DNA of 64,000 nucleotides, from NCBI GenBank assembly GCA_935421135.1, contig OW285191.1, positions 5,837,504 to 5,901,503 of the forward strand, written 5' to 3'. This DNA comes from Bugulina stolonifera (taxonomy: Eukaryota; Bryozoa; Gymnolaemata; Cheilostomatida; Bugulidae). Numbering within the stretch: position 1 is the stretch's first letter; each line of letters opens with the position of its first letter. Both the position numbers and the translations under genes were made by a program. The notes under the pieces are model-generated. The model worked only from the letters and a program-made list of their open reading frames with translations. It ran no database searches and was not told the origin of the DNA. This document shows, in pieces, positions 3,499 through 56,494 of the stretch.

Positions 3499-3770
3499 AT
3501 CAGGGGCATCAGGGACATCAGGGGCATCAGGGACATCAGGGGCATCAGGGGCATCAGGGGCATCAGGGGCATCAGGGGCATCAGGGGCATCAGGGGCATC
3601 AGGGGCATCAGGGGCATCAGGGGCATCAGGGGCATCAGGGGCATCAGGGGCATCAGGGGCATCAGGGGCATCAGGGGCATCAGGGGCATCAGGGGCATCA
3701 GGGGCATCAGGGGCATCAGGGGCATCAGGGGCATCAGGGGCATCAGGGGCATCAGGGGCATCAGGGGCAA
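3499..3770. repeat. 9-bp minisatellite (CATCAGGGG)n
   Basis: About 30 head-to-tail copies of a 9-bp unit (CATCAGGGG) with almost no variation; only the first units carry a G to A change giving GGGACATCAG. The unit length is a multiple of three, so several frames stay open through it as artificial Gly-Ile-Arg, Gly-His-Gln or Met-Pro-Leu repeats. These are not taken as genes. The homogeneity implies recent expansion. Confidence 0.95.
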
Positions 3771-4722: not shown

Positions 4723-6414
4723 TGTGACGAAATATGCTGATTTGTGTATATCAAACCGTTTGGAATAACAGTTCGATATACAAGGACACAGGATTAGCAC
4801 CAATCACAGGTACCACAACATGAAGTTGTGTACACCCAGTGACTAGTGCCAATAACCTATGTCATCAGCACATTCGCAGCGAGGTGCAGAGATATCAACT
4901 TGGATGTTGGGTTGACCTTTTGGGTCATCCCTACTTCCATTATGACATCCACAATTATTATAACATGTATAAGTTATTAGCCACCGATATACTTGTAAAC
5001 AACATTAATCTGATTGGTTTACCATAATACACTTAGCACATGTAGTAAATAATGGTCATAGCACACGTCTAACTAATTAGCATATTTTGTCATTTGTCCC
5101 TACTACTACTAAGTGACAATTCAGGTTCCATGTGCATGTAACATACATTGAGATTGCTAGCAACTCTAGACTCTTCGCGACTGCATTGTCTACATGTACA
5201 TGTACTTGTAATAGCAAATTATTCATTACCTAACTTATTATTATATAACAGATATCTCTGACTGACTATCAACTAAACCCTGCAATCTGAATTCAAATGG
5301 CGTGTATTAATGTCCGAGTTATTATGTTCCTTAAATTACATTCAGAACCAAATGTGAGATTCAAAGTTCAATTTAATATCTTTATTATTAAAAGCCTAAC
5401 TATAAAATATAATACATATTATAAGCTATAAAGTTGATTACTACATTGCAAAACTTACAGTTTCAGTCCTTTTTGGTTGCTCTGCGTTCTTGACAAATTG
5501 ATACAAAAAGTATACTGTAAAAGTGTAAGATAGATATTAGTAAGCTCTATGTAAAAAGTCTTATGTCCTTATACCCGCCTCTCTCACTCTCTCTCTGTCT
5601 GTGTCTCTCTGTCTCTCTCTGTCTCTCTCTGTCTCTCTCTGTTTCTGTCTCTATCGCGGTGCCTCTTTTATATCAACCAGATTGGTATGTCATATAAATT
5701 CCAAACTGCATGTACGATGTATCCAGCAGACCCGGGTATATCTAGATGGTACTAAGCTCCGGTTTTTGTTTCTGATGCCATACTCATGGCGCCATACTGG
5801 GTCTATGTTGCCTGTAGCACACTAGGATATTCTCATGATATGACTTGTGCTGTTATATGAATATAATGTCATACCCATCACATCATGCTTGATCTTAACC
5901 AATTCTAAGTTTTCTGTCTCAGACAGTAAAGCCAATGTTCTGTGCTGCTTGTACTGCACCAGGATATTCTCACGATAATTAAATAATTAAATAACTAATG
6001 TCATATTTTTTGTGTGTGCTTTCTGTAGCACACCACAAACAAGTTCAGAGCAAACCATAATTGACGTCAACTTATATTGCCATGTAAATTCATAAAATAA
6101 CTTTATAAAATGTGTATACTACATGTACATGTATATGCATGCAACATCCCATCACATAAAACAATGCTACGCTTTACCAAATTTCAAAGCAACTTTATTT
6201 ATGTAGTATTATTCAATATTCAAATTATTCAAAACTGTATATAATAATGCTCAAAGCCATGTATTTATAAAGCTATGCAATAATATCCACAAGCATGTAT
6301 TTATAAAGGTATAATATGTGTATAAGGTATAATATGTGTTTTGTATTATTTATAGCACTATATTAGTACGACACTAGTGTGTCAAAGGGTAGTCATATAA
6401 ATAAATACATGACA
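4723..6414 (-). repeat. Gypsy-A 3' LTR
   Basis: 1692 bp, the copy downstream in element orientation. In element sense it begins TGTCATGTATTTATT and ends CGTCACA. It includes a TCTC-rich microsatellite (about 5580-5650), and the short open frames in it recur unchanged in the other LTR. Those frames have no domain and are not called as genes. Confidence 0.93.
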
Positions 6415-10860: not shown

Positions 10861-12552
10861 TGTGACGAAATATGCTGATTTGTGTATATCAAACCGTTTG
10901 GAATAACAGTTCGATATACAAGGACACAGGATTAGCACCAATCACAGGTACCACAACATGAAGTTGTGTACACCCAGTGACTAGTGCCAATAACCTATGT
11001 CATCAGCACATTCGCAGCGAGGTGCAGAGATATCAACTTGGATGTTGGGTTGACCTTTTGGGTCATCCCTACTTCCATTATGACATCCACAATTATTATA
11101 ACATGTATAAGTTATTAGCCACCGATATACTTGTAAACAACATTAATCTGATTGGTTTACCATAATACACTTAGCACATGTAGTAAATAATGGTCATAGC
11201 ACACGTCTAACTAATTAGCATATTTTGTCATTTGTCCCTACTACTACTAAGTGACAATTCAGGTTCCATGTGCATGTAACATACATTGAGATTGCTAGCA
11301 ACTCTAGACTCTTCGCGACTGCATTGTCTACATGTACATGTACTTGTAATAGCAAATTATTCATTACCTAACTTATTATTATATAACAGATATCTCTGAC
11401 TGACTATCAACTAAACCCTGCAATCTGAATTCAAATGGCGTGTATTAATGTCCGAGTTATTATGTTCCTTAAATTACATTCAGAACCAAATGTGAGATTC
11501 AAAGTTCAATTTAATATCTTTATTATTAAAAGCCTAACTATAAAATATAATACATATTATAAGCTATAAAGTTGATTACTACATTGCAAAACTTACAGTT
11601 TCAGTCCTTTTTGGTTGCTCTGCGTTCTTGACAAATTGATACAAAAAGTATACTGTAAAAGTGTAAGATAGATATTAGTAAGCTCTATGTAAAAAGTCTT
11701 ATGTCCTTATACCCGCCTCTCTCACTCTCTCTCTGTCTGTGTCTCTCTGTCTCTCTCTGTCTCTCTCTGTCTCTCTCTGTTTCTGTCTCTATCGCGGTGC
11801 CTCTTTTATATCAACCAGATTGGTATGTCATATAAATTCCAAACTGCATGTACGATGTATCCAGCAGACCCGGGTATATCTAGATGGTACTAAGCTCCGG
11901 TTTTTGTTTCTGATGCCATACTCATGGCGCCATACTGGGTCTATGTTGCCTGTAGCACACTAGGATATTCTCATGATATGACTTGTGCTGTTATATGAAT
12001 ATAATGTCATACCCATCACATCATGCTTGATCTTAACCAATTCTAAGTTTTCTGTCTCAGACAGTAAAGCCAATGTTCTGTGCTGCTTGTACTGCACCAG
12101 GATATTCTCACGATAATTAAATAATTAAATAACTAATGTCATATTTTTTGTGTGTGCTTTCTGTAGCACACCACAAACAAGTTCAGAGCAAACCATAATT
12201 GACGTCAACTTATATTGCCATGTAAATTCATAAAATAACTTTATAAAATGTGTATACTACATGTACATGTATATGCATGCAACATCCCATCACATAAAAC
12301 AATGCTACGCTTTACCAAATTTCAAAGCAACTTTATTTATGTAGTATTATTCAATATTCAAATTATTCAAAACTGTATATAATAATGCTCAAAGCCATGT
12401 ATTTATAAAGCTATGCAATAATATCCACAAGCATGTATTTATAAAGGTATAATATGTGTATAAGGTATAATATGTGTTTTGTATTATTTATAGCACTATA
12501 TTAGTACGACACTAGTGTGTCAAAGGGTAGTCATATAAATAAATACATGACA
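10861..12552 (-). repeat. Gypsy-A 5' LTR
   Basis: 1692 bp, the same length as the 3' LTR and with no difference seen in the compared stretches. For a minus-strand element this copy holds the active promoter position. The flank ATCAT at 12553-12557 completes the target duplication. Confidence 0.93.
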
Positions 12553-39241: not shown

Positions 39242-39395
39242 CTTGTGAGGTATTGCTAGGCTGCTGGTGACAATAGATATATGTATGTAATTGTTGCTAG
39301 CCTATTTTGTCCACTATTTTTAGGGACAAACAGTTTTCTTTGGATTGGTGGAAGATGCATAAACGATACCAATGAGTTTGAATGGTATGGCAGCA

Positions 39396-40104
39396 GTAGT
39401 ATAGTCAGTGCACTTCTAGACAGACACGCACTCATTGACCCCTGTTTTCAACCAATCACAAGCCGGTATTTCCGATTTCAACCAATCACAGAAGAGCACA
39501 AAAATTTTGCACACGACCTTGCCAAGGTCACCCCAAAATCCCCCCTTCTGATTGGTCGAAAAAACATTTGCACACTTGACCCCGAACCCGGCCACGACCC
39601 CTTCCCTCCCTCCTTCCCGCCCTCCTCCCCCTCCCCCACCTCCCACTCCTCCCCCACTCCCCGCCACCGCCCTCGTCCCGTCCGCGCCACCGCCGTCGCC
39701 GCCGCCGCCACCGCCGCCCTCACCGCCGCCGTCGCCGCCGCCACCACCGCCCTCACCGCCGCCGCCGCCACCGCCGCCACAACCGCCACCGCCGCCACCG
39801 CCGCCACCACCACCGCCGCCGCCGCCGCCACCGCCGCCGCCGCCATCACCGTCATCACCGCCACCCCTCCTCCACCGCCGCCCACCCTCCCCCCGCAACC
39901 CCCACTCACCCGAACGACCGATCGTTTGAGGCGGTCAAGCCGCGTCCGCCCACGTTGCGTGCGGCGCCGACCGTACACGTGGAGGCGACGCCGGTGCCCC
40001 GTATCCACCGGGCCAAGCGACTAGGCAGCGGCCCGCCGCTTCTCCCGAGCCCTCCACTCGAAAAGCTTGTGATCTAAACGAGCGAATTCGGCTGCGCTTC
40101 GCCT
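39396..40104. repeat. Left terminal inverted repeat of the 9.1-kb element
   Basis: About 709 bp matching 47765-48480 inverted. The outer 200 bp is unique sequence with a duplicated AACCAATCACA motif. About 39600-39900 is dominated by CCG/CCA triplets (very high GC), and the inner part is unique GC-rich sequence. Open frames through it are Pro-, Ala- or Gly-rich by-products of the triplets. Confidence 0.9.
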
Positions 40105-41060
40105 ACGGCTCTCATTAGCGATAAGAAGAAGTACTACGGAAGGCTTGGTTTCAGCGATAAGAAGAAGTACTACGGAAGGTTTGGTTTATGATGCGCATTG
40201 CATTGTTAATAAAGAAATGTGTAAAGTCTTGGCTATAAATATACTGATGGGAAGAAGGGTTGTTTCTATGATATACATTGTATTGACAACAAAGAACCGT
40301 GTGCATGTGTTAAGTCAGCATATATAATACATTAAATAAACTTTTCGCAATGGTGACAATAGAATGAATAAAAGATTGTGTACACGTGTTAAAACACAAT
40401 TGAAAGAATAAAAGACACATATTTAAAAGAGTATGTCATATCTGTTATTAGCAAGGAAGTCTGTGTGCATGTGTTAAGACAGTGTATATTATACATTAGA
40501 TAAACTTTTCACAATAGTAGCAATAGAATAAATAAAAGGTTGTGTGCATGTGTTAAGTCAGCATTATGTAATATATTAAATAAACTTTTCACAATAGTAG
40601 CAATAGAATAAATAAAAGATTGAGTGTATGTGTTAAGTCAGCATTATGTAATACATTAAATACACTTTTTACAACACTAGCAATAGAATGAATAAAAAAG
40701 CTACATATGTAAAGGAGTATGTCATAGCTATTGTTAGCAAGAAAAGTCTGTGTACATGTGTTAAGGGCAGCATATATAATACATTAAATAAACTTTTCAC
40801 AATAGTAGCAATAGAATAAATAAAGATTGTGTACACATGTTGAAATATCATTATAATATGATTTAAACACAATTGAAAGAATAAAAGACACATATGTAAA
40901 GGAGTATGTCATAGCTATTATAGCAAGAGACAGCTGTGTGCATGTGTTAAGTCAGCACATATAATACATTAAATAAACTTTTTACAATAGTAGCAATAGA
41001 ATGTATAAAAGGATGTGTATAAGTGTTAGAATACCATTATATAATAATTTAAAAAAATAA
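40105..41060. repeat. Left subterminal repeat array
   Basis: First a short duplication (GCGATAAGAAGAAGTACTAC, twice near 40118 and 40155). Then about six copies of a unit of roughly 80 bp spaced irregularly to 41040: GTGTGCATGTGTTAAGTCAG, ATACATTAAATAAACTTTT, CACAATAGTAGCAATAGAAT. Some copies alternate with AAGAATAAAAGACACATA / GAGTATGTCATA blocks. The right arm carries two of these units inverted. Subterminal arrays often serve as transposase binding sites; here they may also act as gene 3' ends. Confidence 0.85.
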
Positions 41061-41182
41061 TTTTAAAAAATCCTCACTGATTTGCTATCACATAAAAGTA
41101 AATGCAGAGGGAATGAGACACTATAGAGAGAGAGTGGGAGAAAGAGAGTGGGAGAAAAAAGAAAAAAACTAAAGAAAGATGA

Positions 41183-44109
41183 TTAGAGCTTTTCTTCACT
41201 GACTCGAAGGTAAGCTTCAGCTTGTGCTATTACCTCTCTGTGATACCCATTCTTCTTGAGATGAAAAATGGCAGAGCGGTAATACTCAACTGCTCCAGAG
41301 AAAAAAGATGGGGGGAGTCTGCTTCGATCAACTAGTTCACTGACAGTCTCCTCTTCTATGGGGGTAATAGTGGTGGGGGTATTAAGATTGAGTTCAGACG
41401 AACAAGAAGGAGATTGCGAGCTAAGTAGCTCTCTTCCAAAAGAAAGAGAGGGTGAAGCTAAAGAAAAGGAAGAAGTGGTAGTAGTAGAAGTAGTAATAAA
41501 AGTAGGTATTGAAAGACTAGTAATTGTATTATTAGATCTTCCAAGAGAAAAAGAGGGTGAATCTAAGAAAAAGAGTGGAGCAGGTGAAGAGGTGGGAGTA
41601 GAAGTAGGTATCGAAACAGTGGTAACTGTATCATCATATCTTTCAGGAGAATGAGAGAGTGAATGTGAAGAAAAGAGTGGGGGAAAAGAAGCAGTAGAAG
41701 GAGTGGTAGTAATGGTAGTAGTAATAGTAGTAGTTGTAAGAGAAGAAGTAGAGGTGGTAATGTCTCCATTAGTAAGAGAGTTACTGATGGAAGAAGCATC
41801 TGAATCAAAATGATGGTGAGAAGGGAGAGGAAATTGTGAAGAGCACACCCCAGACTTTACAGATCTTTCAGGAGAATGAGAGGGTGAATGTGAAGAAAAG
41901 AGTGGAGGAAAAGAAGTAGTAGAAGGAGTAGTAGTAATAGTAGTAGTTGTAAGAGAAGAAGTAGAGATGGTAATGTCTCCATTAGTAAGAGAGTTACTGA
42001 TGGAAGAAGCATCTGAATCAAAATGATGGTGAGAAGGGAGAGGAAATTGTGAAGAGCACACCCCAGACTTTAAAGAGAATGGAGTAGTAGACATCCCCTT
42101 AAAGAAGGGAGGGTATACTACCCCACCAACAGTTGTTGGAGTGTATGCGGGGATGAGTATTTTGGAAGGTGGAGAGTGACCAGTGACCCTTTGCAAAAAG
42201 GATATGGTCTTTTTTAATGAATAGATATCGGTTAGAAAGCGTGTGTTGAATGAGATGTGTCGGTGACAGGGCTTTCCATCAATATGATGATTAGATGGAA
42301 AGTTGTAGTGTCTATTCATCCCCTCATCATCTACTGTTATGTGATAGCAAAAACAGATTCGGAGCAAAAAATGTTGTTGAATGTGGACACCTCGTCGGTG
42401 CCCAACATTCTTATTGCATAAAAAGCAGGGGTCGTCCGATTCAAATGGCTTTGTTAGTGACATCTCCAGTCTTCTTTTTGTCTCATCACTAACAAAGACA
42501 TAGAATCTTAGACCCCCCTTACATATCGACTTTGCTCTGAGTCCTAAAAAAGAAAGAAAATAACAAGAATAAGTGAGAGAGAACATATGACTTACTTGTA
42601 AATCAGAAAAAAAAAAAAAAAGATTCTAAATATACAAATAGATACTAGATCATTCTTACCTATCTCGAACCCATCTACTCCCCCACATCCTTCAAATAAC
42701 GCAATTTCTTCTTCCCCTAGTTCTGTTTCTTTTTCATTCTATAATGTAAATAAAATGTGCAGAGACTAATTAACAAACTACATTAACATAGTTATTTGTA
42801 ATATATGATTTTTGAGGAATTTGATGAAAAAACTAGCACTCTAAGTACTAAGCAAGTCTACTAAAGCCTGTCTATTTACTCACATAAAGAGAAATACATC
42901 ATTAACATAAGAAAACCAGTTGTAATTTATGTTATATTTTTTCACATAAGAAAAGAAAAAAAGTGTCTTATTGATAAAAATAATACATAAGAAAGAAAGT
43001 GCAATACTTATAATAAAAATATCACTAATCTTTAACATCTTAGACATGGTAAGAGACTTATAGAATTAGAGAAAATCATACTATGGCTAATTAACATCTG
43101 GTTTTAAAAAGGAAGTAGTCTCTTTTGACATTCTAGACATGGTAAGAGGCTTATAGTATAAAAAAGTACATCATCATTATGTGTAACTAACATGTACTTC
43201 TGAAGAAATGTCAGTAATCTCCTTTGACATCTTAGAAACCCAACACCATAGTGGATTGAAGGTGTAATGCATGTGTGAACAAATAAGATAATAGACTAAC
43301 CATTTCTGGAGATGGGATTCTTTTCCTCGAGATTCGTCTTCTGTCTTCCGAATCGTACGTAATCATATACTTCATACCTTTCTTTGATGTTTTAATTTTT
43401 CTTATATATTTCTTTCTTTGATATTTAGATGTAGAAGCCTGTAAGTATATGTAGAGTAATAAACATATACCAAAGCATGAGTCAAGTAGATGGAACTACT
43501 AATGCAACATAGTTACTAAAGAAAGAAACACTACAGTGGTATAACCACTTATAATAAAGTTTCTAAGCTCTGGTCACACTGATTGTAGTATAGACAGAGC
43601 AGATCTCTACACACATGCTCTCATGTTGAGAATCAAAACAGTTTAATATATAAGCTTACAACGTTTTTAAGCCCTGGACATACCAAAGGAGAATTATACC
43701 ACTACTAAAATATAATTAGCCCCAATGTTAACTCAAATGAGTAAGTTCATATTAAAATACATATTAAAATAGCTAGGATGTACTAGTATAGCCAGTACAA
43801 GTGGTAATAAACTGTTTTGATACTTATTACACTACTAGTGGTATAACTACTCATATTGAAAACAAATCTCACAACATATAAAGCTTCTAAGCTCCGGTCA
43901 CACAAATTGTAGTATAGACAGATCAGATCTCTACATACTTGCTCTCATGTTGAGAATCAAAACAGTTTAATACATAAGCTTACAAAGTTTCTAAGCTCTG
44001 GTCATACCAAGGGAGTATTATATCACTACTAAAGTAGAATTAGTCCCAATGTTAACTCAAATGAGTAAATTCATACTAAAATACATATTAAAATAAGTTT
44101 ACTCACCAT
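41183..44109 (-). CDS. Gene B of the 9.1-kb element: unrecognised ~526-aa protein
   Basis: Predicted minus-strand exons: 44109-44107 (ATG directly before GTGAGT), 43438-43301, 42738-42660 and 42543-41183, joining in frame to 526 aa. The N-terminus is basic (SKYQRKKYIRKIKTSKK) with RRRISRKR. A Cys/His-rich segment near 113-141 (CFLC, H122, H127, H131, CFC, H141) could bind zinc. Then comes a long Ser/Thr/Pro region that includes a tandem 71-codon duplication (SGVCSSQFPLPSHHHF twice, DNA 41808-42073) and SHSPER motifs, and a helical C-terminus. I recognise no family. It is spliced and divergent from gene A. The first exon (ATG only) is the weakest part; translation could instead begin at a later Met in exon 2. 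Confidence 0.65.
43557..44097. repeat. Duplicated ~215-bp block in gene B intron 1
   Basis: 43557-43770 and about 43880-44097 are diverged direct copies sharing TTCTAAGCTC-GGTCACAC, CTCTCATGTTGAGAATCAAA, CAGTTTAATA and CCCAATGTTAACTCAAATGA. The second copy abuts the start exon. Non-coding. Confidence 0.8.
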
Positions 44110-44189
44110 ATTAATTGTTGAGTGATGTTTATTCAGAGAAATTAGTAAATATCCACAGAGTTGCAAGTCTTTACTAGGTGGTTGAGTGG

Positions 44190-44245
44190 TAATGATAAAA
44201 ATCCTCTCTCACGCTTGCTTTTATGGAAATCTCTGTCCAATCAGA
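44190..44245 (-). promoter_or_regulatory. Gene B putative promoter
   Basis: On the minus strand a CCAAT-box inverse (CTGATTGG, plus 44237-44244) is followed by a TATA-like CCATAAAAGC (plus 44217-44226), then about 110 bp of possible 5' UTR to the ATG at 44109. Spacing is normal for a TATA promoter. It faces away from the gene A promoter across the minisatellite. Confidence 0.55.
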
Positions 44246-44276
44246 AGTGATTTGCCTTTTTTTAGTCTGATTTATT

Positions 44277-45900
44277 GCATCCCGATGTGATTCGATGTAA
44301 CCCGATGTAACCCGATGTAACCCGATGTAACCCGATGTAACCCGATGTAACCCGATGTAACCCGATGTAACCCGATGTGTTTTCGACCTCCCCCGATGTG
44401 TTTTCGACCTCCCCCGATGTGATTCGATGTGTCTCGATGTGTTTTCGACCTCCCCCGATGTGATTCGATGTGTCCCGATGTGTTTTCGACCTTCCCCGAT
44501 GTGACCCGATGTAACCCGATGTAACCCGATGTAACCCGATGTAACCCGATGTGTTTTTTACCTCCCCCGATGTGTTTTCGACCTCCCCCGATGTGATTCG
44601 ATGTGTCTCGATGTGTTTTTGACCTTCCCCGATGTAACCCGATGTGTTTTTGACCTCCCCCGATGTGATTCGATGTGTCCCGATGTGTTTTCGACCTCCC
44701 CCGATGTGATTCGATGTGTTTTCGACCTCCCCCGATGTGATTCGATGTGTTTTCGACCTCCCCCGATGTGATTCGATGTGTCCCGATGTGTTTTCGACCT
44801 CCCCCGATGTGTTTTCGACCTCCCCCGATGTGATTCGATGTGTTTTCGACCTCCCCCGATGTGATTCGATGTGTTTTCGACCTCCCCCGATGTGATTCGA
44901 TGTGTTTTCGACCTCCCCCGATGTGATTCGATGTGTCCCGATGTGTTTTCGACCTCCCCCGATGTGATTCGATGTGTCCCGATGTGTTTTCGACCTCCCC
45001 CGATGTGATTCGATGTGTTTTCGACCTCCCCCGATGTGTTTTCGACCTCCCCCGATGTGATTCGATGTGTTTTCGACCTCCCCCGATGTGATTCGATGTG
45101 TTTTCGACCTCCCCCGATGTGATTCGATGTGTTTTCGACCTCCCCCGATGTGTTTTCGACCTCCCCCGATGTGATTCGATGTGTCCCGATGTGTTTTCGA
45201 CCTCCCCCGATGTGATTCGATGTGTCCCGATGTGTTTTCGACCTCCCCCGATGTGATTCGATGTGTTTTCGACCTCCCCCGATGTGTTTTCGACCTCCCC
45301 CGATGTGATTCGATGTGTTTTCGACCTCCCCCGATGTGATTCGATGTGACCCGATGTGTTTTCGACCTCCCCCGATGTGATTCGATGTGTCCCGATGTGT
45401 TTTCGACCTCCCCCGATGTGTTTTCGACCTCCCCCGATGTGATTCGATGTGTTTTCGACCTCCCCCGATGTGTTTTCGACCTCCCCCGATGTGATTCGAT
45501 GTGTTTTCGACCTCCCCCGATGTGATTCGATGTGACCCGATGTGTTTTCGACCTCCCCCGATGTGATTCGATGTGTCCCGATGTGTTTTCGACCTCCCCC
45601 GATGTGTTTTCGACCTCCCCCGATGTGATTCGATGTGTTTTCGACCTCCCCCGATGTGTTTTCGACCTCCCCCGATGTGATTCGATGTGTTTTCGACCTC
45701 CCCCGATGTGATTCGATGTGTCCCGATGTGTTTTCGACCTCCCCCGATGTGATTCGATGTGTCCCGATGTGTTTTCGACCTCCCCCGATGTGATTCGATG
45801 TGTCCCGATGTGTTTTCGACCTCCCCCGATGTGTTTTCGACCTTTCCCGATGTGTTTCGATGTTTCCCTATGTGTTTTCGATCTTTCCCGATGTGATTCG
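44277..45900. repeat. 1.6-kb CGATGTG minisatellite between genes A and B
   Basis: Composite array built from CCCGATGTAAC-type 10-mers (left part) and units CCCCGATGTG + TTTTCGACCTC of 21 bp, extended in 10-bp steps to 31 and 41 bp by inserting ATTCGATGTG and TCCCGATGTG. It is flanked by the two gene promoters. Long open frames exist on the minus strand (over 550 codons) only because unit lengths permit; they code monotonous GGRKHIESHR-type repeats and are not genes. It could be an enhancer, boundary or neutral satellite. Confidence 0.92.
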
Positions 45901-45945
45901 ATGCACTCTGATGTGTTTCCAATGCACTCCAATGTATATGCTGTT

Positions 45946-45988
45946 AGCCAATCAGCTTTATTTGTATCTTTTTATTCACTATATAAAG
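45946..45988 (+). promoter_or_regulatory. Gene A putative promoter
   Basis: A CCAAT box (AGCCAATCAG, 45946-45955) and a TATA box (CTATATAAAG, 45979-45988) lie about 85 bp before the ATG at 46074. Spacing and composition mirror the gene B promoter, giving a symmetrical divergent pair. Confidence 0.65.
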
Positions 45989-46073
45989 AGAGGTGGAAAC
46001 AGTAGTTTAGTTAACTCTTTCTAGCTCCAGTCTGTTCTTAATAGAAATTAAAGAAGGTTAGCACACAAATAGC

Positions 46074-47514
46074 ATGGAAAGTGGATATGGATCAAGCGAG
46101 TATAGCAACAAGCTAATGACTCCTATAAACCAAGAGCTGATGAAGGTAACAGTGGAAAGATGTACAGAACAAAGCAAGTATGAGAATAAAGACTTATTTG
46201 AGGGGGTGTCTGAGCTCTTTCTCCAAAAAAGCTTACCTCTAGACTGGCAGAAATGGGATCCTTTAACCGATATTCGTAATAAGCTTAGCACACAGTTACT
46301 AGAAGAAATTCGTTCTATCTTTTGGGAGCAAGATGGAAAGGATGAAGAGTTGTAAGTTATACATACTTCCAACTATTTTTTTTTTTTTTTTTTTGTTTAG
46401 TATTGTCTTTTATGATCAAAATAAAATATGATAGACAAATTTCCCATATAACTACCTCTCAACTATGTGAAAAACAAATATCATGCTAAATGATGTAGTG
46501 AGGTACTAGAAGCAGCCCGAGATAGAGATGAGAGAGCCGTTGCACTCGCGGTATTTGTTGCGAGGAGTCACAAACAACTGAATACAAAGAATGCGAATCG
46601 GCAGACGTTACTTCACCTAACTGTACAGTCTTATTGTTCGGATTCACTAATTCGCCTCATCATCACAAGGGGAGCGGATGGAGCAATAGCCGATGCTTGG
46701 GGTTAGTGTTTTATAGCACCAATGTTTGCATGCATTGCTTGTTAAAAAATAAAGTGTTGCAAAACTTGTAACAATTCGGTACTTATCTATATTGCTAATG
46801 TTTATTTGGAAGGTGACACCCCCCTTCACATTGCTGCACGTCTGGGTAGAGCTAAGGTTATTCATGCTCTAACCACAAGTTTGACCAGAGCAGAAGTAAA
46901 GCATCCATACTTCAGAGTTCCTTACAAATCACTTCCCCAAGACAATGTACAGAGCTACAATCATGATGGAAGGAGTGTAGTCCACCTCATTGTTGAAACA
47001 GCGCATAGCAGCAAGCATAGAGAGGCACTAAAGGTACTAAAAAAAAATACTCGGGCTGACTTAGATATGAGGGTAAGTGAATACATTACAGTGGAATAAA
47101 AGTAGAGTAGATCGAATTGATAAGTTAGATGGGGAGTTTAATTCTATTCTCTTGTTTGATATTATAGCGAATGGGAGATGGATACGCCCCATCTCACATT
47201 GCCATAGAGAATGAAGACTACGAATGTCTACATACATGTCTAAGATTGGGAGCTGATTCTGAAGTTCGTAACTACAAAAGTGAAACCCCTCAACAACTAG
47301 CTCACCTCTACAAATCAGCAGATATGGTAAGGGACCAACAACATAAAGAAGTATAGGTTTCTTGCTTGAGTGATATTCGTCTGAGTAAAAAACTAAAATC
47401 ATCTTGTAGGTAAGACTGTGTCAAGAGTTTGGAGCTGGAGCATATCAATTAGAGTATGCTGAGACCGAAGTCGTAAACATTATAGCTCCTACGACTTCTG
47501 ATGAAGATGAGTAA
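46074..47514 (+). CDS. Gene A of the 9.1-kb element: IkB/Cactus-like ankyrin-repeat protein
   Basis: Exons 46074-46351, 46499-46701, 46813-47072, 47168-47326 and 47410-47514 join in frame to 334 aa with GT/AG sites. The N-terminus MESGYGSSEY carries ESGxxS, close to the DSGxxS degron that IKK phosphorylates in IkB. After about 90 non-repeat residues come about five ankyrin repeats: LNTKNANRQTLLHLTVQ (about 120-155), GDTPLHIAARLG (about 160-190), NHDGRSVVHLIVE, GDGYAPSHIAIENE and GADSEVRNYKSETPQQLAHL. The end is acidic (TTSDEDE), like an IkB PEST tail. Known IkBs hold Rel/NF-kB in the cytoplasm; whether this one does is inference. It is inside the TIRs, with its own TATA promoter, so it is cargo. 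It could be a generic ankyrin protein instead. Confidence 0.8.
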
Positions 47515-47529
47515 TAAGTACCTAAACTC

Positions 47530-47764
47530 CTCTTTTATTTATTCTATTGCTACTATTGTGAAAAGTTTATTTAATATATTACATAATGCTGACTTAACAC
47601 ATGCACACAACCTTTTATTTATTCTATTGCTACTATTGTGAAAAGTTTATCTAATGTATAATATACACTGTCTTAACACATGCACACAGACTTTCTTGCT
47701 AATAATAGATATGACATACTCTTTTAAATATGTGTCTTTTATTTTTTCAATTGTGTTTTAACAC
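47530..47764. repeat. Right subterminal repeats
   Basis: Two inverted copies of the left-arm unit (TTTATTTATTCTATTGCTAC, GTGAAAAGTTTAT, CTTAACACATGCACACA) plus a CATACTCTTTTAAATATGTG block ending at GTTTTAACACAGGCGAAG, where the TIR proper starts. The left arm has about six units, so the two arms differ in copy number. Confidence 0.85.
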
Positions 47765-48480
47765 AGGCGAAGCGCAGCCGAATTCGCTCGTTTAGATCAC
47801 AAGCTTTTCGAGTGGAGGGCTCGGGAGAAGCGGCGGGCCGCTGCCTAGTCGCTTGGCCCGGTGGATACGGGGCACCGGCGTCGCCTCCACGTGTACGGTC
47901 GGCGCCGCACGCAACGTGGGCGGACGCGGCTTGACCGCCTCAAACGATCGGTCGTTCGGGTGAGTGGGGGTTGCGGGGGGGAGGGTGGGCGGCGGTGGAG
48001 GAGGGGTGGTGGTGATGGCGGTGATGGCGGCGGCGGTGGCGGCGGCGGCGGCGGTGGTGGTGGCGGCGGTGGCGGCGGTGGCGGCGGTGGCGGTTGTGGC
48101 GGCGGTGGCGGCGGCGGCGGTGAGGGCGGTGGTGGCGGCGGCGACGGCGGCGGTGAGGGCGGCGGTGGCGGCGGCGGCGACGGCGGTGGCGCGGAGGGGA
48201 CGAGGGCGGTGGCGGGGAGTGGGGGAGGAGTGGGAGGTGGGGGAGGGGGAGGAGGGCGGGAAGGAGGGAGGGAAGGGGTCGTGGCCGGGTTCGGGGTCAA
48301 GTGTGCAAATGTTTTTTCGACCAATCAGAAGGGGGGATTTTGGGGTGACCTTGGCAAGGTCGTGTGCAAAATTTTTGTGCTCTTCTGTGATTGGTTGAAA
48401 TCGGAAATACCGGCTTGTGATTGGTTGAAAACAGGGGTCAATGAGTGCGTGTCTGTCTAGAAGTGCACTGACTATACTAC
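47765..48480. repeat. Right terminal inverted repeat of the 9.1-kb element
   Basis: About 716 bp, inverted match to 39396-40104, differing mainly by small indels in the GGC/GGT triplet run (about 47990-48200). It ends GCACTGACTATACTAC, directly followed by TGGCAGCA and the rest of CTL3 exon 4. Confidence 0.9.
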
Positions 48481-48640
48481 TGGCAGCAATGACACTAAAA
48501 CACAGATTTCAACATCTGATTGGGCTATTGGGGAGCCAAGCTCCAAGACAGGATGCTGCGTCGCAATGAAAGTTAAATATGGCTGGTATGACAAGAGATG
48601 CAATTATAAATTCTGGTTTCTCTGTGAAGCAATACCATAG

Positions 48641-53743: not shown

Positions 53744-55658
53744 ATGTCATCACTTTTCTATCTACATGTATATGTTTGTCTTCAGGCAGCTACTGTCATG
53801 ATAGGTGTTTCAGTAAGTTAGACATATACCTCATATTATTGCTTTTATATTCTACAAAATATGTACATTGTATAACGAAAGCAAGAGTGCTAAAAGCCAT
53901 TTAGAATGGTATGCCAACATTTCTACCTTAGTTTTATCTACATTGTACTATGTTTTCTTCAGTACTTTTCATATCACTTTGTATAATGGAGTAAACAAGC
54001 TGCCAGTTACAACCCCATGTAAATATATATACCATTATGCCCCTACATGCTTTTATGTGCGTTTCCTAGCTAGGCAGATTTTATTGTGACCATTTCAAGT
54101 GAAAAATATGTACATGCAAGCTGGATGGCAGTTTGCAACATTGTTAAATAATTGTAATTGGAATAATTGGATAACTTTCATATACACTAAGGTATTACGC
54201 TAACTCCCAATATATCCAAGTTAGTCTTTAGGTGTACTAGCACACATATATGCTTAACATTCTAGATCATATCTGCCCAGTCAGAAGAGCAGCTATTCAA
54301 GAGAGTAGACAACTCTACACTCAACTCTACATCAGATATATTTACTGTGTCTGGAATCAGATCAGATTTACAATGTATGGACTTGTGTGTTCAGAAGACT
54401 AACTGTAAGACTGTAGCCTATGATCCTAAGAATAAGACTTGTCAATTGTCTGATTTAATTTCAGTTAGCAATGTTGTTGGATCAGAGGCTAGAAGAAGAG
54501 TTTACGAAGGTAGTCTATATTTATAATATAATGATATAAGGTATATCTATAAAATTCAGAGTTATTGTAATCATAAAAACTAGTATCTGCTAAACACTAT
54601 TATTAGATTTACCAGACTTAAGGCAGCATATTGCCTCTCTGCTTTCATAGTGTAAAAATGCAAAGTCTTTCTAGTAAGAATAGTCCGTAAATTAGCCGGA
54701 GATCAAACACAATCGTACATATTCAAGCTAATTACATCTCTATACAAGAGCCGCATTTGTTTTATTTTAGCTTTATCATGTCCGGAAAATTACTTTTACC
54801 ATCTACACTCAGATACCTGTATTAGATTAGTGAGAGAAAGTTTATCTTGGAATAAAGCCAAGAAAAGTTGTGCCGCTGCTGGAGAAATTCTAATAAATCT
54901 TGATACCATAGAAGCTTCAAAGTGGCTGAGGAATTACTTTGAGTCACAGAATATGGAAGGAGGTCCAAACTCTTTAGGTATGTTGAATTGGTATCCGTTT
55001 TGGTTGCATGCTTTACTCTGGTACCTCTACTGAGTTTTTGCTACTGTACTTGTGTGTCACTATCCTTTTTTTATTTTGTCCCCAATAATAGGAGTTTGAA
55101 CTGCCCTTCTAGATAAAAAATAACATAACATAAAAGCTGCAGAATAATATAATAAATCAACATACTTATTTAACCTGCTCCATGCAACAAACATGACTCT
55201 TCTTCGAGAACATTAGTATCAAATCATGTGTGTAGCAAGTAATACAATTGTACATGTGTATAGCAAACTACATGTACATGTAGACATTGATTAATGATCT
55301 TGTAGAGTTTGTAGAACTGGTTATATTTCTCATCACAGTGATGACTGTGCTTACAATGTAAATGTATATCATTTGGTCTGGTGCCTAAATAGCTGTAGCT
55401 ATTAAATATATTTTACCATATTCATTATTTTTAGGGACGGACAGATTTCTTTGGATTGGTGGAAGATGCATAAACGGTACCAATGAGTTTGAATGGTATG
55501 GCAGCAATGACACTAAAACACAGATTTCAACATCTGATTGGGCTATTGGGGAGCCAAGCTCCAACACAGGATGCTGCGTCGCAATGAAAGTTGCAAATGG
55601 ATGGAATGACAAGAAATGCAGTTATAAATTTTGGTTTCTCTGTGAAGCAACTCCATAG
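53744..55658 (+). CDS. CTL4: secreted PAN plus C-type lectin domain protein
   Basis: Exons 53744-53812, 54266-54509, 54771-54977 and 55435-55658 give 247 aa with intron phases 0, 1 and 1. Exon 1 encodes a hydrophobic leader (MSSLFYLHVYVC...). Exon 2 (244 nt) is the PAN module with LQCMDLCVQKTNCKTVAYDP. Exons 3-4 form the lectin domain: CPENYFYHL, CIRLVRESLSWNKAKKSC, EASKWLRN, FLWIGGRC, WAIGEPSS, CCVAMKV, GWNDKKC, FWFLCE. The WND triad of calcium site 2 is kept, while the usual EPN is EPS, so calcium-dependent sugar binding is possible but uncertain. Exon 4 is nearly identical to CTL3, pointing to recent duplication or conversion. The upstream region differs from CTL1-CTL3. Confidence 0.88.
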
Positions 55659-56494
55659 TGACTGATTATTTATATGATGTACCAGTAACAAAGTTAGAAG
55701 TTTATAAGGTCTCTCGATTGTGTACTGAATAAGTAATATTTTGGAGATTTGATCTCTGCTTTACCAGTTTGCTGCAATAGATAGCGGTTTTTTCACTTGT
55801 TATACAACAGGAAGTAAGCCAATTAATGTGACTTGTGACTGCATGTATTAGCGAATTAGAAAATATTAGCATGCATTAGACAAAAACATTGTTGTTGTTT
55901 TCTTGAACTGTTAATAAACTTAAATTGTCGTGCAAATTGTCAGGCCAAGGTTCTTGGGCTTTCTGTCAGGCCAAGGTTCTTGGGCTTTCTGTCAGGCCAA
56001 GGTTCTTGGGCTGTGGGATTCATGAATAGAGATCAATAGTGTGATACTAGATATTATTCAATATTAATTGTATTTGCAAAATAAAATTAAATGTAAACTT
56101 TTAAACCACTTAAGTAAGCTTAGGAATAATTTTAGTCAACTAATTGTTGTCTATTTGATATGCCAGCAAATATATTTATTCAAAAACCCTAGGGCATTAT
56201 GCATAATTGTTGCTATTTGACCCAATTTTGTAAATATAGGCTTAAATTATTAAACATGTACAAATGTTAATGTTGATATAGCATCCAAATTAAACATACA
56301 TGGAGCTTTCTTGAGATGTTTGATGAGTTGAATTTATAGGTTCAGTAAACACGTGTGTATAAGAAAATTTCTGAAGTGGCACTCAGCTTTGTTCTGTGTA
56401 ATTGCTAGTATAAATTTATTTTATTGCTGAGATACAGATGCGCTGAGAAGGTCTGATATTTTTACTCAAATAATATTTAATCATATGGGAAAGA
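55659..56494. other. CTL4-CTL5 intergenic stretch
   Basis: No gene. It includes the CTL4 3' flank that matches the CTL3 3' flank, a 26-bp triplicate repeat, and the start of the segment duplicated at 51685-52030. Confidence 0.5.
55939..56013. repeat. 26-bp tandem repeat, three copies
   Basis: The unit GTCAGGCCAAGGTTCTTGGG plus CTTTCT begins at 55939, 55965 and 55991. The first two copies are identical and the third is identical up to its last bases. Confidence 0.92.

What the first reader, a model, noticed from the sequence alone, without database searches (positions are those of the whole stretch)
39396..48480. 9.1-kb inverted-repeat element with two cargo genes and no recognisable transposase, inserted in a lectin exon
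Seen directly: perfect 8-bp duplication TGGCAGCA, ~710-bp terminal inverted repeats, subterminal arrays in mirrored arrangement, and two divergent spliced genes around a minisatellite. Excision on paper restores CTL3 exon 4 to the 224 nt of CTL4. Known cut-and-paste elements carry a transposase; composite cargo elements usually carry gene fragments. Two complete promoter-bearing genes, one IkB-like, in a symmetrical frame look like a distinct kind of cargo transposon. Gene B may be a new type of recombinase or an accessory protein.
Basis: partly seen in the sequence, partly recalled or inferred. Interest (0 to 1): 0.92.

Follow-up and report, generated by a model that had tools for sequence, protein, structure and literature searches.

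The report
Polinton split into separate mobile segments
In this genome, probably a bryozoan's, a virus-like Polinton transposon appears to be split into three kinds of separately inserted DNA segments (polymerase; integrase and capsid; and this one, carrying a host-type immune regulator), an arrangement we did not find described.

Summary
The insertion is real: 39395-48481 (9,087 bp), TIRs of 710/717 bp at 98%, in a lectin exon whose uninterrupted paralogue lies at 55423-55841. The duplication is 6 bp (GGCAGC), not 8; all 23 copies examined that differ in their flanks have perfect 6-bp duplications. With AGTAGT...ACTACT ends this is the Polinton/Maverick signature.

It belongs to a large family: 771 + 785 matches to the terminal 22-mer at up to 3 mismatches, control 1 + 1. 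Its genes fall into separate classes: (i) rve integrase, A32-like ATPase and probable capsid/protease genes (mostly 10.6-11.1 kb); (ii) spliced pPolB (mostly 9.6-9.8 kb); (iii) the window's class, an IkB gene plus unknown gene B (mostly 8.4-9.6 kb). Diagnostic 36-mers occur 198, 272 and 147 times; by the listed places, 0 of 97 paired elements carries two. The classes share an 18-bp end, 6-bp duplications and a CCCGATG array.

Best reading: a Polinton divided over three separately integrating segments, one carrying an IkB related to bryozoan Cact. The "missing transposase" is the integrase on sister segments; gene B is not shown to be a recombinase. Mobilisation in trans, packaging and NF-kB inhibition are inferred.

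The parts
39389..39394 (.). left copy of 6-bp target-site duplication GGCAGC
39395..40104 (+). left terminal inverted repeat (AGTAGTATAGTCAGTGCA...), 710 bp
   Evidence: terminus found 271+279 times exactly (30-mer) and 771+785 times at <=3 mismatches (22-mer)
40299..41057 (.). left subterminal array of about 80-bp repeats
41183..42543 (-). gene B, last coding exon: Cys/His cluster, Ser/Thr-rich repeats, C-terminus
   Evidence: 147 genome copies of its 36-mer; pN/pS 0.37 in 7 copies, one of them half covered
42660..42738 (-). gene B exon 3
   Evidence: GT-AG splice signals
43301..43438 (-). gene B exon 2 (basic)
44107..44109 (-). gene B start codon at the end of exon 1
   Evidence: donor GTGAGT
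44281..45903 (.). minisatellite between the two divergent genes; 75 copies of the core CCCGATG
   Evidence: the same core array is in every fetched capsid-, pPolB- and gene-poor-class copy, none in the unrelated Polinton stretch L059
45980..45985 (+). TATA box of gene A
46074..46351 (+). gene A (IkB) exon 1
46499..46701 (+). gene A exon 2 (ankyrin)
   Evidence: boundaries read by eye
46813..47072 (+). gene A exon 3 (ankyrin)
   Evidence: boundaries read by eye
47168..47326 (+). gene A exon 4
   Evidence: boundaries read by eye
47410..47514 (+). gene A exon 5 and stop
   Evidence: boundaries read by eye
47531..47764 (.). right subterminal repeats, inverted copy of 40386-40619 (99%)
47765..48481 (-). 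right terminal inverted repeat, ends ...ACTACT
48482..48487 (.). right copy of 6-bp target-site duplication GGCAGC
55423..55841 (+). paralogous lectin exon region, serves as the empty site
   Evidence: joined flanks align gap-free, 89.7% over 419 nt

Best explanation
The window element is one segment of a Polinton (Maverick) whose genes are divided over at least three kinds of separately integrating elements. The integrase/capsid segment supplies an rve-chromodomain integrase, a packaging-type ATPase and probable protease, major and minor capsid proteins. The polymerase segment supplies a spliced protein-primed-type DNA polymerase B. The window's segment supplies an IkB (inhibitor of NF-kB) related to bryozoan Cact and a second protein, gene B. 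Shown: the partition in the elements examined, common 18-bp ends, 6-bp duplications, shared CCCGATG array, high copy number, near-identity of scored copies, and purifying selection on the capsid-class and cargo genes. Inferred: the polymerase copies all segments from their shared AGTAGT ends, the integrase inserts them all in trans, capsids package them, and the IkB damps host NF-kB (Rel) signalling while the element replicates.
For: Duplications: (23 of 23 perfect 6 bp; control 2 of 506). Family size: 271+279, control 0+0; 771+785, control 1+1; second end type 313+318, control 0+0. Partition: tblastn of 13 gene products against 17 elements or loci (14 family elements end to end, 2 family pieces, 1 outside Polinton): no integrase/capsid gene, pPolB exon set or IkB/gene B pair occurs together in one family element. 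Of 97 paired elements from C1-C3, none holds two classes by the exact pattern places listed (6 unpaired ends dropped). All five listed cases of two classes within 20 kb lie in separate elements. Class counts 198 / 272 / 147, controls 0. Domains: rve 2e-11, Chromo 1e-6, Pox_A32 1e-6; polymerase pieces match the pPolB of another Polinton in this genome at 1.6e-13 and 3.5e-13, with motifs A, B and C by my own pattern. IkB: Ank_2 4.6e-13; 70% identity over 86% of the query to 'cact' of Bugula neritina, 59% over 85% to Watersipora 'NF-kappa-B inhibitor alpha-like'. Selection: capsid-class genes 79 synonymous / 60 nonsynonymous variants, pN/pS 0.21, p 5e-19 (5 copies); cargo exons 27/30, 0.35, p 9e-5 (7 copies). 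Shared array core. A 40-bp insertion made only of two fused 18-bp ends and GATC, with its own 6-bp duplication (L037:18-57), suggests that the shared ends suffice for integration, unless it is a later deletion.
Against: No direct evidence of co-replication, packaging or mobilisation in trans. The partition is not absolute: part of the divergent gene beside the array in the polymerase segment also occurs in 4 of 5 capsid-class elements (53-61% of it), and gene-poor elements keep a pPolB fragment. The polymerase class has a second TIR type that shares only the first 18 bp and a later CAGACAC with the window's. Tests for complete elements used capped listings of exact pattern places (100 of 198 integrase, 100 of 272 polymerase, 78 of 147 gene B). 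No host IkB locus was recognised, but only 104 of 895 candidates were scored and the list was cut. Selection p-values treat sites as independent; one capsid-class gene shows no constraint (0.94) and the protease is not significant.
Confidence: 0.72

Rival explanations
1. The IkB/gene B element is a satellite: a non-autonomous hitchhiker with Polinton ends that rides on the integrase/capsid and polymerase elements without giving anything back. (This overlaps with the best explanation: the other two classes would still be a divided Polinton.)
For: No replication or integration gene of the family was found in it. A gene-poor palindromic class with the same ends exists and can only be a hitchhiker (L046, L062).
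Against: Both cargo genes are complete and spliced in the window, gene B's pattern occurs 147 times, and the cargo exons show purifying selection across 7 copies (27/30, pN/pS 0.35).
Confidence: 0.2
2. The classes are complementing defective derivatives of a complete Polinton that is rare, lost, or present only in other individuals; the division is recent debris, not a genome plan.
For: A canonical Polinton with pPolB and integrase side by side exists in the same genome (L059). Gene-poor elements keep fragments of the pPolB 3' part next to the TIR. Capsid-class and polymerase elements share part of one gene.
Against: No complete element among 97 paired copies by the listed places. Each class has a narrow main size, many near-identical copies and intact genes (integrase frame open in 114 of 114 scored copies, the best of 383 candidates), unlike random deletion derivatives.
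Confidence: 0.15
3. Domesticated provirus used by the host, as in parasitoid wasp polydnaviruses, with IkB-like segments delivered to another organism.
For: Segmented DNA with IkB-like ankyrin genes is known from polydnaviruses (PMC3210807, PMC3757122: start of abstracts); the genes are conserved between copies.
Against: Copies are dispersed over the chromosomes, have target duplications, and one interrupts a host exon, which is selfish behaviour; they end in terminal inverted repeats.
Confidence: 0.05
4. Separate 8-bp-duplication cargo transposon with an unrecognised recombinase (gene B).
For: This copy's flanks happen to match over 8 bp.
Against: 6-bp duplications in 23 of 23 copies; ends shared with integrase-bearing elements; no recombinase match for gene B.
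Confidence: 0.02
5. Assembly artefact or segmental inversion.
For: Long inverted repeats and minisatellites are hard to assemble.
Against: Hundreds of copies; all 100 listed exact ends form 50 inward-facing pairs; independent 6-bp duplications; gap-free empty site in a paralogue.
Confidence: 0.01

Closest known systems
Polintons/Mavericks (adintovirus-like elements of animals)
   Same: 6-bp duplications, long TIRs with (AGT)2...(ACT)2 ends, rve integrase, A32/FtsK-like ATPase, pPolB, and probable capsid and protease genes (definitions from passages of PMC4028283 and PMC8097293).
   Different: Published Polintons are 15-20 kb with the core genes on one element, and intact vertebrate ones have no introns. 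Here polymerase and integrase/capsid genes lie on different elements of about 9-11 kb, pPolB is spliced, and a third class holds an IkB and gene B.
Bidna-like viruses such as Drosophila Vesanto virus (up to twelve segments; PMC8363768, abstract and passages)
   Same: A virus lineage with a Polinton-type PolB and a divided genome.
   Different: Those are ssDNA viruses with a parvovirus-like capsid protein and helicase (PMC11071296, passages); here the parts are Polinton-type and sit in chromosomes as TIR elements with target duplications.
Polydnavirus vankyrins (PMC3210807, PMC3359993, PMC3757122: titles and start of abstracts in the search listing)
   Same: IkB-like ankyrin genes carried on separate DNA segments; such proteins bind or inhibit insect NF-kB.
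   Different: Vankyrins lack the sequences for regulated degradation; gene A keeps an ESGxxS near its start where Bugula Cact has DSGxxS. No sign of host domestication was seen here.
Non-autonomous DNA transposons with captured genes (recalled)
   Same: Ends of an autonomous family, foreign gene inside, mobilised in trans.
   Different: Here the supposed partners are themselves split, and the cargo genes are complete and conserved between copies.

Membership tests
Polinton/Maverick | 6-bp target-site duplication | tested here: met
   23 of 23 copies with different flanks; control 2 of 506
Polinton/Maverick | long TIRs with AG/AGT-repeat ends | tested here: met
   710/717-bp TIR starting AGTAGT; end-motif definition from PMC8097293 passages
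Polinton/Maverick | rve integrase | tested here: met
   on sister elements: rve 2e-11, 198 copies of its 36-mer; absent from the window element
Polinton/Maverick | pPolB | tested here: met
   on other sister elements: E 1.6e-13 and 3.5e-13 to the pPolB of L059, motifs A, B, C; direct PF03175 scores of the pieces are weak (0.0028 and 0.094)
Polinton/Maverick | A32/FtsK-like packaging ATPase | tested here: met
   Pox_A32 1.3e-6, 28.5 bits against a cut-off of 22.8
Polinton/Maverick | double jelly-roll major capsid, penton and adenovirus-type protease | tested here: inconclusive
   Capsid_N 0.21, Peptidase_C5 0.14, penton no match; S273R protease 0.089; MCP profile finds no capsid in the PDB; structure prediction unavailable
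Polinton/Maverick | core genes together on one element (15-20 kb) | tested here: not met
   0 of 97 paired elements carry two classes by the listed places; matrix of fetched elements
hAT or other 8-bp-duplication transposon | 8-bp duplication | tested here: not met
IkB / Cactus | ankyrin repeats with closest relatives named as IkB | tested here: met
   Ank_2 4.6e-13; cact of Bugula neritina 70%
IkB / Cactus | DSGxxS phosphodegron and acidic tail | tested here: inconclusive
   ESGxxS near the start and a short acidic tail; function not testable here
Segmented virus | segments co-packaged or co-transmitted | not testable with these tools
   needs particles, reads or expression data

The most novel reading that the evidence does not exclude
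A tripartite endogenous animal virus: three linear DNA segments with common ends (replication; integration and capsid; immune modulation by an acquired IkB), each copied, packaged and inserted separately, making up an estimated 3% of a bryozoan genome and still active or very recently so.
Probability: 0.4. Interest if true: 0.95.

Novelty: new variant of a known kind. Interest (0 to 1): 0.86.

Why it matters
Polintons are regarded as relatives or ancestors of many eukaryotic DNA viruses. A Polinton divided into segments in hundreds of near-identical copies would show how a self-synthesising transposon can become a multipartite system, and would allow testing of how separate segments stay together. 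A segment devoted to a host-type IkB would be evidence that an animal Polinton carries a gene for handling innate immunity, converging on the vankyrins of polydnaviruses. It also warns that 'transposase-less cargo elements' may be parts of divided systems.

Tried and rejected
8-bp duplication: rejected. Gene B as recombinase: no convincing match (the last two covered residues 1-253 and 1-215 only); I note a C-x2-C-x10-H-x3-H spacing in its last exon, read by eye only. pPolB inside capsid elements: not found. The Pfam polymerase model has 11 matches genome-wide, none inside the listed elements of C1; the one examined (L059) is a different, canonical Polinton. Free relatives: no match in IMG/VR for the MCP alignment, a pPolB exon or the integrase, nor in the phage collection for the MCP; only 7 MCP relatives besides a 100% identical one were found in the protein collection. 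Host's own IkB: not resolved. Host identity: inferred only from the nearest named IkB relatives, both bryozoans. Literature: ten searches; in their listings I saw no paper whose title or printed abstract start describes a segmented Polinton or one with an IkB gene; the only paper holding 'polinton', 'segmented' and 'bipartite' (PMC12567637, passages) does not. The library holds open-licence papers only, and no paper was read whole.
Full report
What is there. The window element runs from 39395 to 48481. Its ends are inverted repeats of 710 and 717 bp at 98.2% identity, followed by mirrored subterminal repeats of about 80 bp. It lies in a C-type lectin exon: the flanks joined without the element and one duplication copy align without a gap to a paralogous exon at 55423-55841, 89.7% over 419 nt. 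The duplication is GGCAGC, 6 bp.

It is one of many. The terminal 30-mer occurs 271 + 279 times exactly with no control match; the 100 listed places form 50 inward-facing pairs 8.4-17.2 kb apart. The terminal 22-mer occurs 771 + 785 times at up to 3 mismatches, control 1 + 1, so some 778 elements if all ends pair; at about 9.6 kb each this is roughly 3% of the 235-Mb genome (my estimate; the longer lists also hold shorter pairs of 3.5 and 6.9 kb and a few unpaired ends). Of 23 copies with different flanks, 23 have a perfect 6-bp duplication. One search had printed 22 of 23; the miss was my script's choice of a second end in L037, corrected. Pairing left and right flanks of different copies gives 2 of 506. 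Two further locus pairs (L033/34, L035/36) have the same flanks as L031/32 and were not counted again.

Classes. Among copies with the window's end type, some carry the IkB gene and gene B; others carry an rve integrase with a chromodomain (2e-11, 1e-6), a Pox_A32-type ATPase (1.3e-6) and genes for a probable major capsid protein, penton and protease (these three are weakly supported). A second end type, sharing the first 18 bp and a later CAGACAC with the window's, occurs 313 + 318 times and carries a spliced DNA polymerase B with zinc fingers and a weak Vsr-like stretch (0.0022), plus a divergent gene. Polymerase pieces match the polymerase of a canonical Polinton in the same genome (L059) at 1.6e-13 and 3.5e-13 and hold motifs A, B and C. 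Gene-poor palindromic copies (L046, L062) retain a pPolB fragment beside the TIR.

The partition. A tblastn matrix of 13 gene products against 17 elements or loci (14 family elements end to end, L062 and L063 in part, L059 as an outsider) separates the classes: 7 elements with IkB and gene B only, 5 with the integrase/capsid set, 2 with pPolB, 2 gene-poor. By contrast L059 has integrase and polymerase within 5 kb. One gene crosses the border: part of the divergent gene beside the array in the polymerase segment is also in 4 of the 5 capsid-class elements. Of 49 paired type-I elements on C1 and part of C2, 23 carry the gene B pattern and 18 the integrase pattern; of the 8 others 3 carry the integrase, one is the gene-poor L046 and 4 are unassigned. 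Of 48 type-II elements on C1, C2 and part of C3, 35 carry the polymerase pattern and 13 do not. None of the 97 carries two classes, judged by the exact pattern places that were listed. Two unpaired type-I and four unpaired type-II ends were left out. Genome-wide 36-mer counts at up to 3 mismatches are integrase 198, polymerase 272, gene B 147, controls 0. Of the listed places (100 of 198, 100 of 272, 78 of 147 used), four integrase-polymerase pairs and one polymerase-gene B pair lie within 20 kb. Both on C1 are in neighbouring separate elements by coordinates; for the two on C8 an element end and a new start were found between them, and for the one on C4 the gene B element starts after the polymerase (the polymerase copy's own right end was not found in that 1.2-kb stretch).

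State of the genes. In one search all 114 scored integrase copies, the best of 383 candidates, have an open 359-residue frame. Across 5 capsid-class copies there are 79 synonymous and 60 nonsynonymous variants (pN/pS 0.21, p 5e-19); integrase 14/4, major capsid 18/13. One gene (189 aa) shows no constraint (0.94), and the protease is not significant (p 0.13). In 7 cargo copies gene B's last exon has 19/21 (p 0.002) and three of the five gene A exons together 8/9; pooled 0.35, p 9e-5. Some copies have isolated stops or indels. Selection on the lineage that copies itself is the natural reading.

The cargo. Gene A (334 codons by my reading of the exons) has ankyrin repeats and its nearest relatives are 'cact' of Bugula neritina (70% over 86%) and 'NF-kappa-B inhibitor alpha-like' of Watersipora subatra (59%). 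This points to a bryozoan host and a captured host-type IkB. Its N-terminus is shorter than in those proteins and holds ESGxxS where Bugula has DSGxxS, so whether it escapes regulated degradation, as vankyrins do, is open. Searching the genome with the Bugula protein gave listed hits of 68-76% per exon, many at known element positions; I did not check each, and recognised no separate host gene (104 of 895 candidates scored). Gene B (526 residues) matches nothing convincing.

Mechanism. Shown: shared ends, duplications, arrays and partition. Inferred from Polinton biology: the polymerase starts at the AGTAGT ends, the integrase joins copies to chromosomes with 6-bp staggered cuts, and the cargo segment uses both in trans. 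A 40-bp insertion in L037, two fused 18-bp ends around GATC between two copies of CTCATC, is what an end-only substrate of the integrase would leave, though deletion of a longer palindrome would look the same. The array core CCCGATG is in every fetched family element: 29-75 copies in 7 cargo elements, 44-55 in 5 capsid elements, 53 and 50 in the polymerase loci, 94 and 39 in the gene-poor ones, none in L059. It could be a shared promoter, origin or packaging site.

Comparison. Intact vertebrate Mavericks keep their core genes on one intronless element of about 17 kb with 6-bp duplications and (AG)3 or (AGT)2 ends (PMC8097293, passages); Polintons are 15-20 kb (PMC4028283, passages). Division of a DNA virus genome is known for bidna-like viruses (PMC8363768, abstract and passages). 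IkB-like genes on segments are known from polydnaviruses (abstract starts). I found no description of the combination in the searches named in Tried and rejected.

Limits. The window element alone fails the Polinton gene test; it is filed as a segment or satellite of a divided Polinton, not as a Polinton on its own. The odds given for the best and the rival readings overlap, since the satellite reading of the cargo class leaves the other two classes divided.

Noticed in passing
L037:18-57 (G000:C1, about 1.5 kb left of 14507032): A 40-bp insertion made of two fused 18-bp ends around GATC, flanked by CTCATC on both sides: an end-only element with its own 6-bp duplication.
   Followed up: partly
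L059 (G000:C1:12828300-12833300): A canonical Polinton of another family with pPolB and integrase side by side; PF03175 finds 11 matches genome-wide.
   Followed up: partly
L060:2214-4001 (minus) and L063:2-2431 (minus): The segment polymerase carries a weak Vsr-like endonuclease stretch (Pfam E 0.0022) and C2H2 zinc fingers (1.5e-6).
   Followed up: no
L063:4332-5099 (plus): The polymerase segment has a 256-codon open frame without Pfam match; by eye it looks like two repeated OB-fold-like halves, possibly a single-strand DNA-binding protein.
   Followed up: no
L041:2142 (plus), L048:2487 (minus), L063:3704-4276 (plus): Part of a divergent gene beside the array is shared by capsid-class and polymerase-class elements.
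   Followed up: no
23 copies, target duplications: Target duplications prefer A at position 4 (20 of 23) and T at position 5 (16 of 23), roughly NACATN.
   Followed up: no
L046, L062: Gene-poor palindromic elements with a pPolB fragment at both inner TIR edges: hitchhikers inside the family.
   Followed up: partly
L050 and L056: Open frames resembling other transposons inside two long copies (a hAT-like and a reverse-transcriptase-like frame, recognised by eye), which may explain their extra length.
   Followed up: no
G000:C1:14200014, 14298523 and 14359530: Three integrase-class copies within 0.16 Mb share the same flanks, so one insertion was duplicated with its surroundings.
   Followed up: partly
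window 5579-5652 and 11717-11790: The same simple repeat occurs twice, 6.1 kb apart, with the same repeat-finder rows, suggesting a local duplication.
   Followed up: no
window 3499-3769: Minisatellite of 30 copies of ATCAGGGGC.
   Followed up: no
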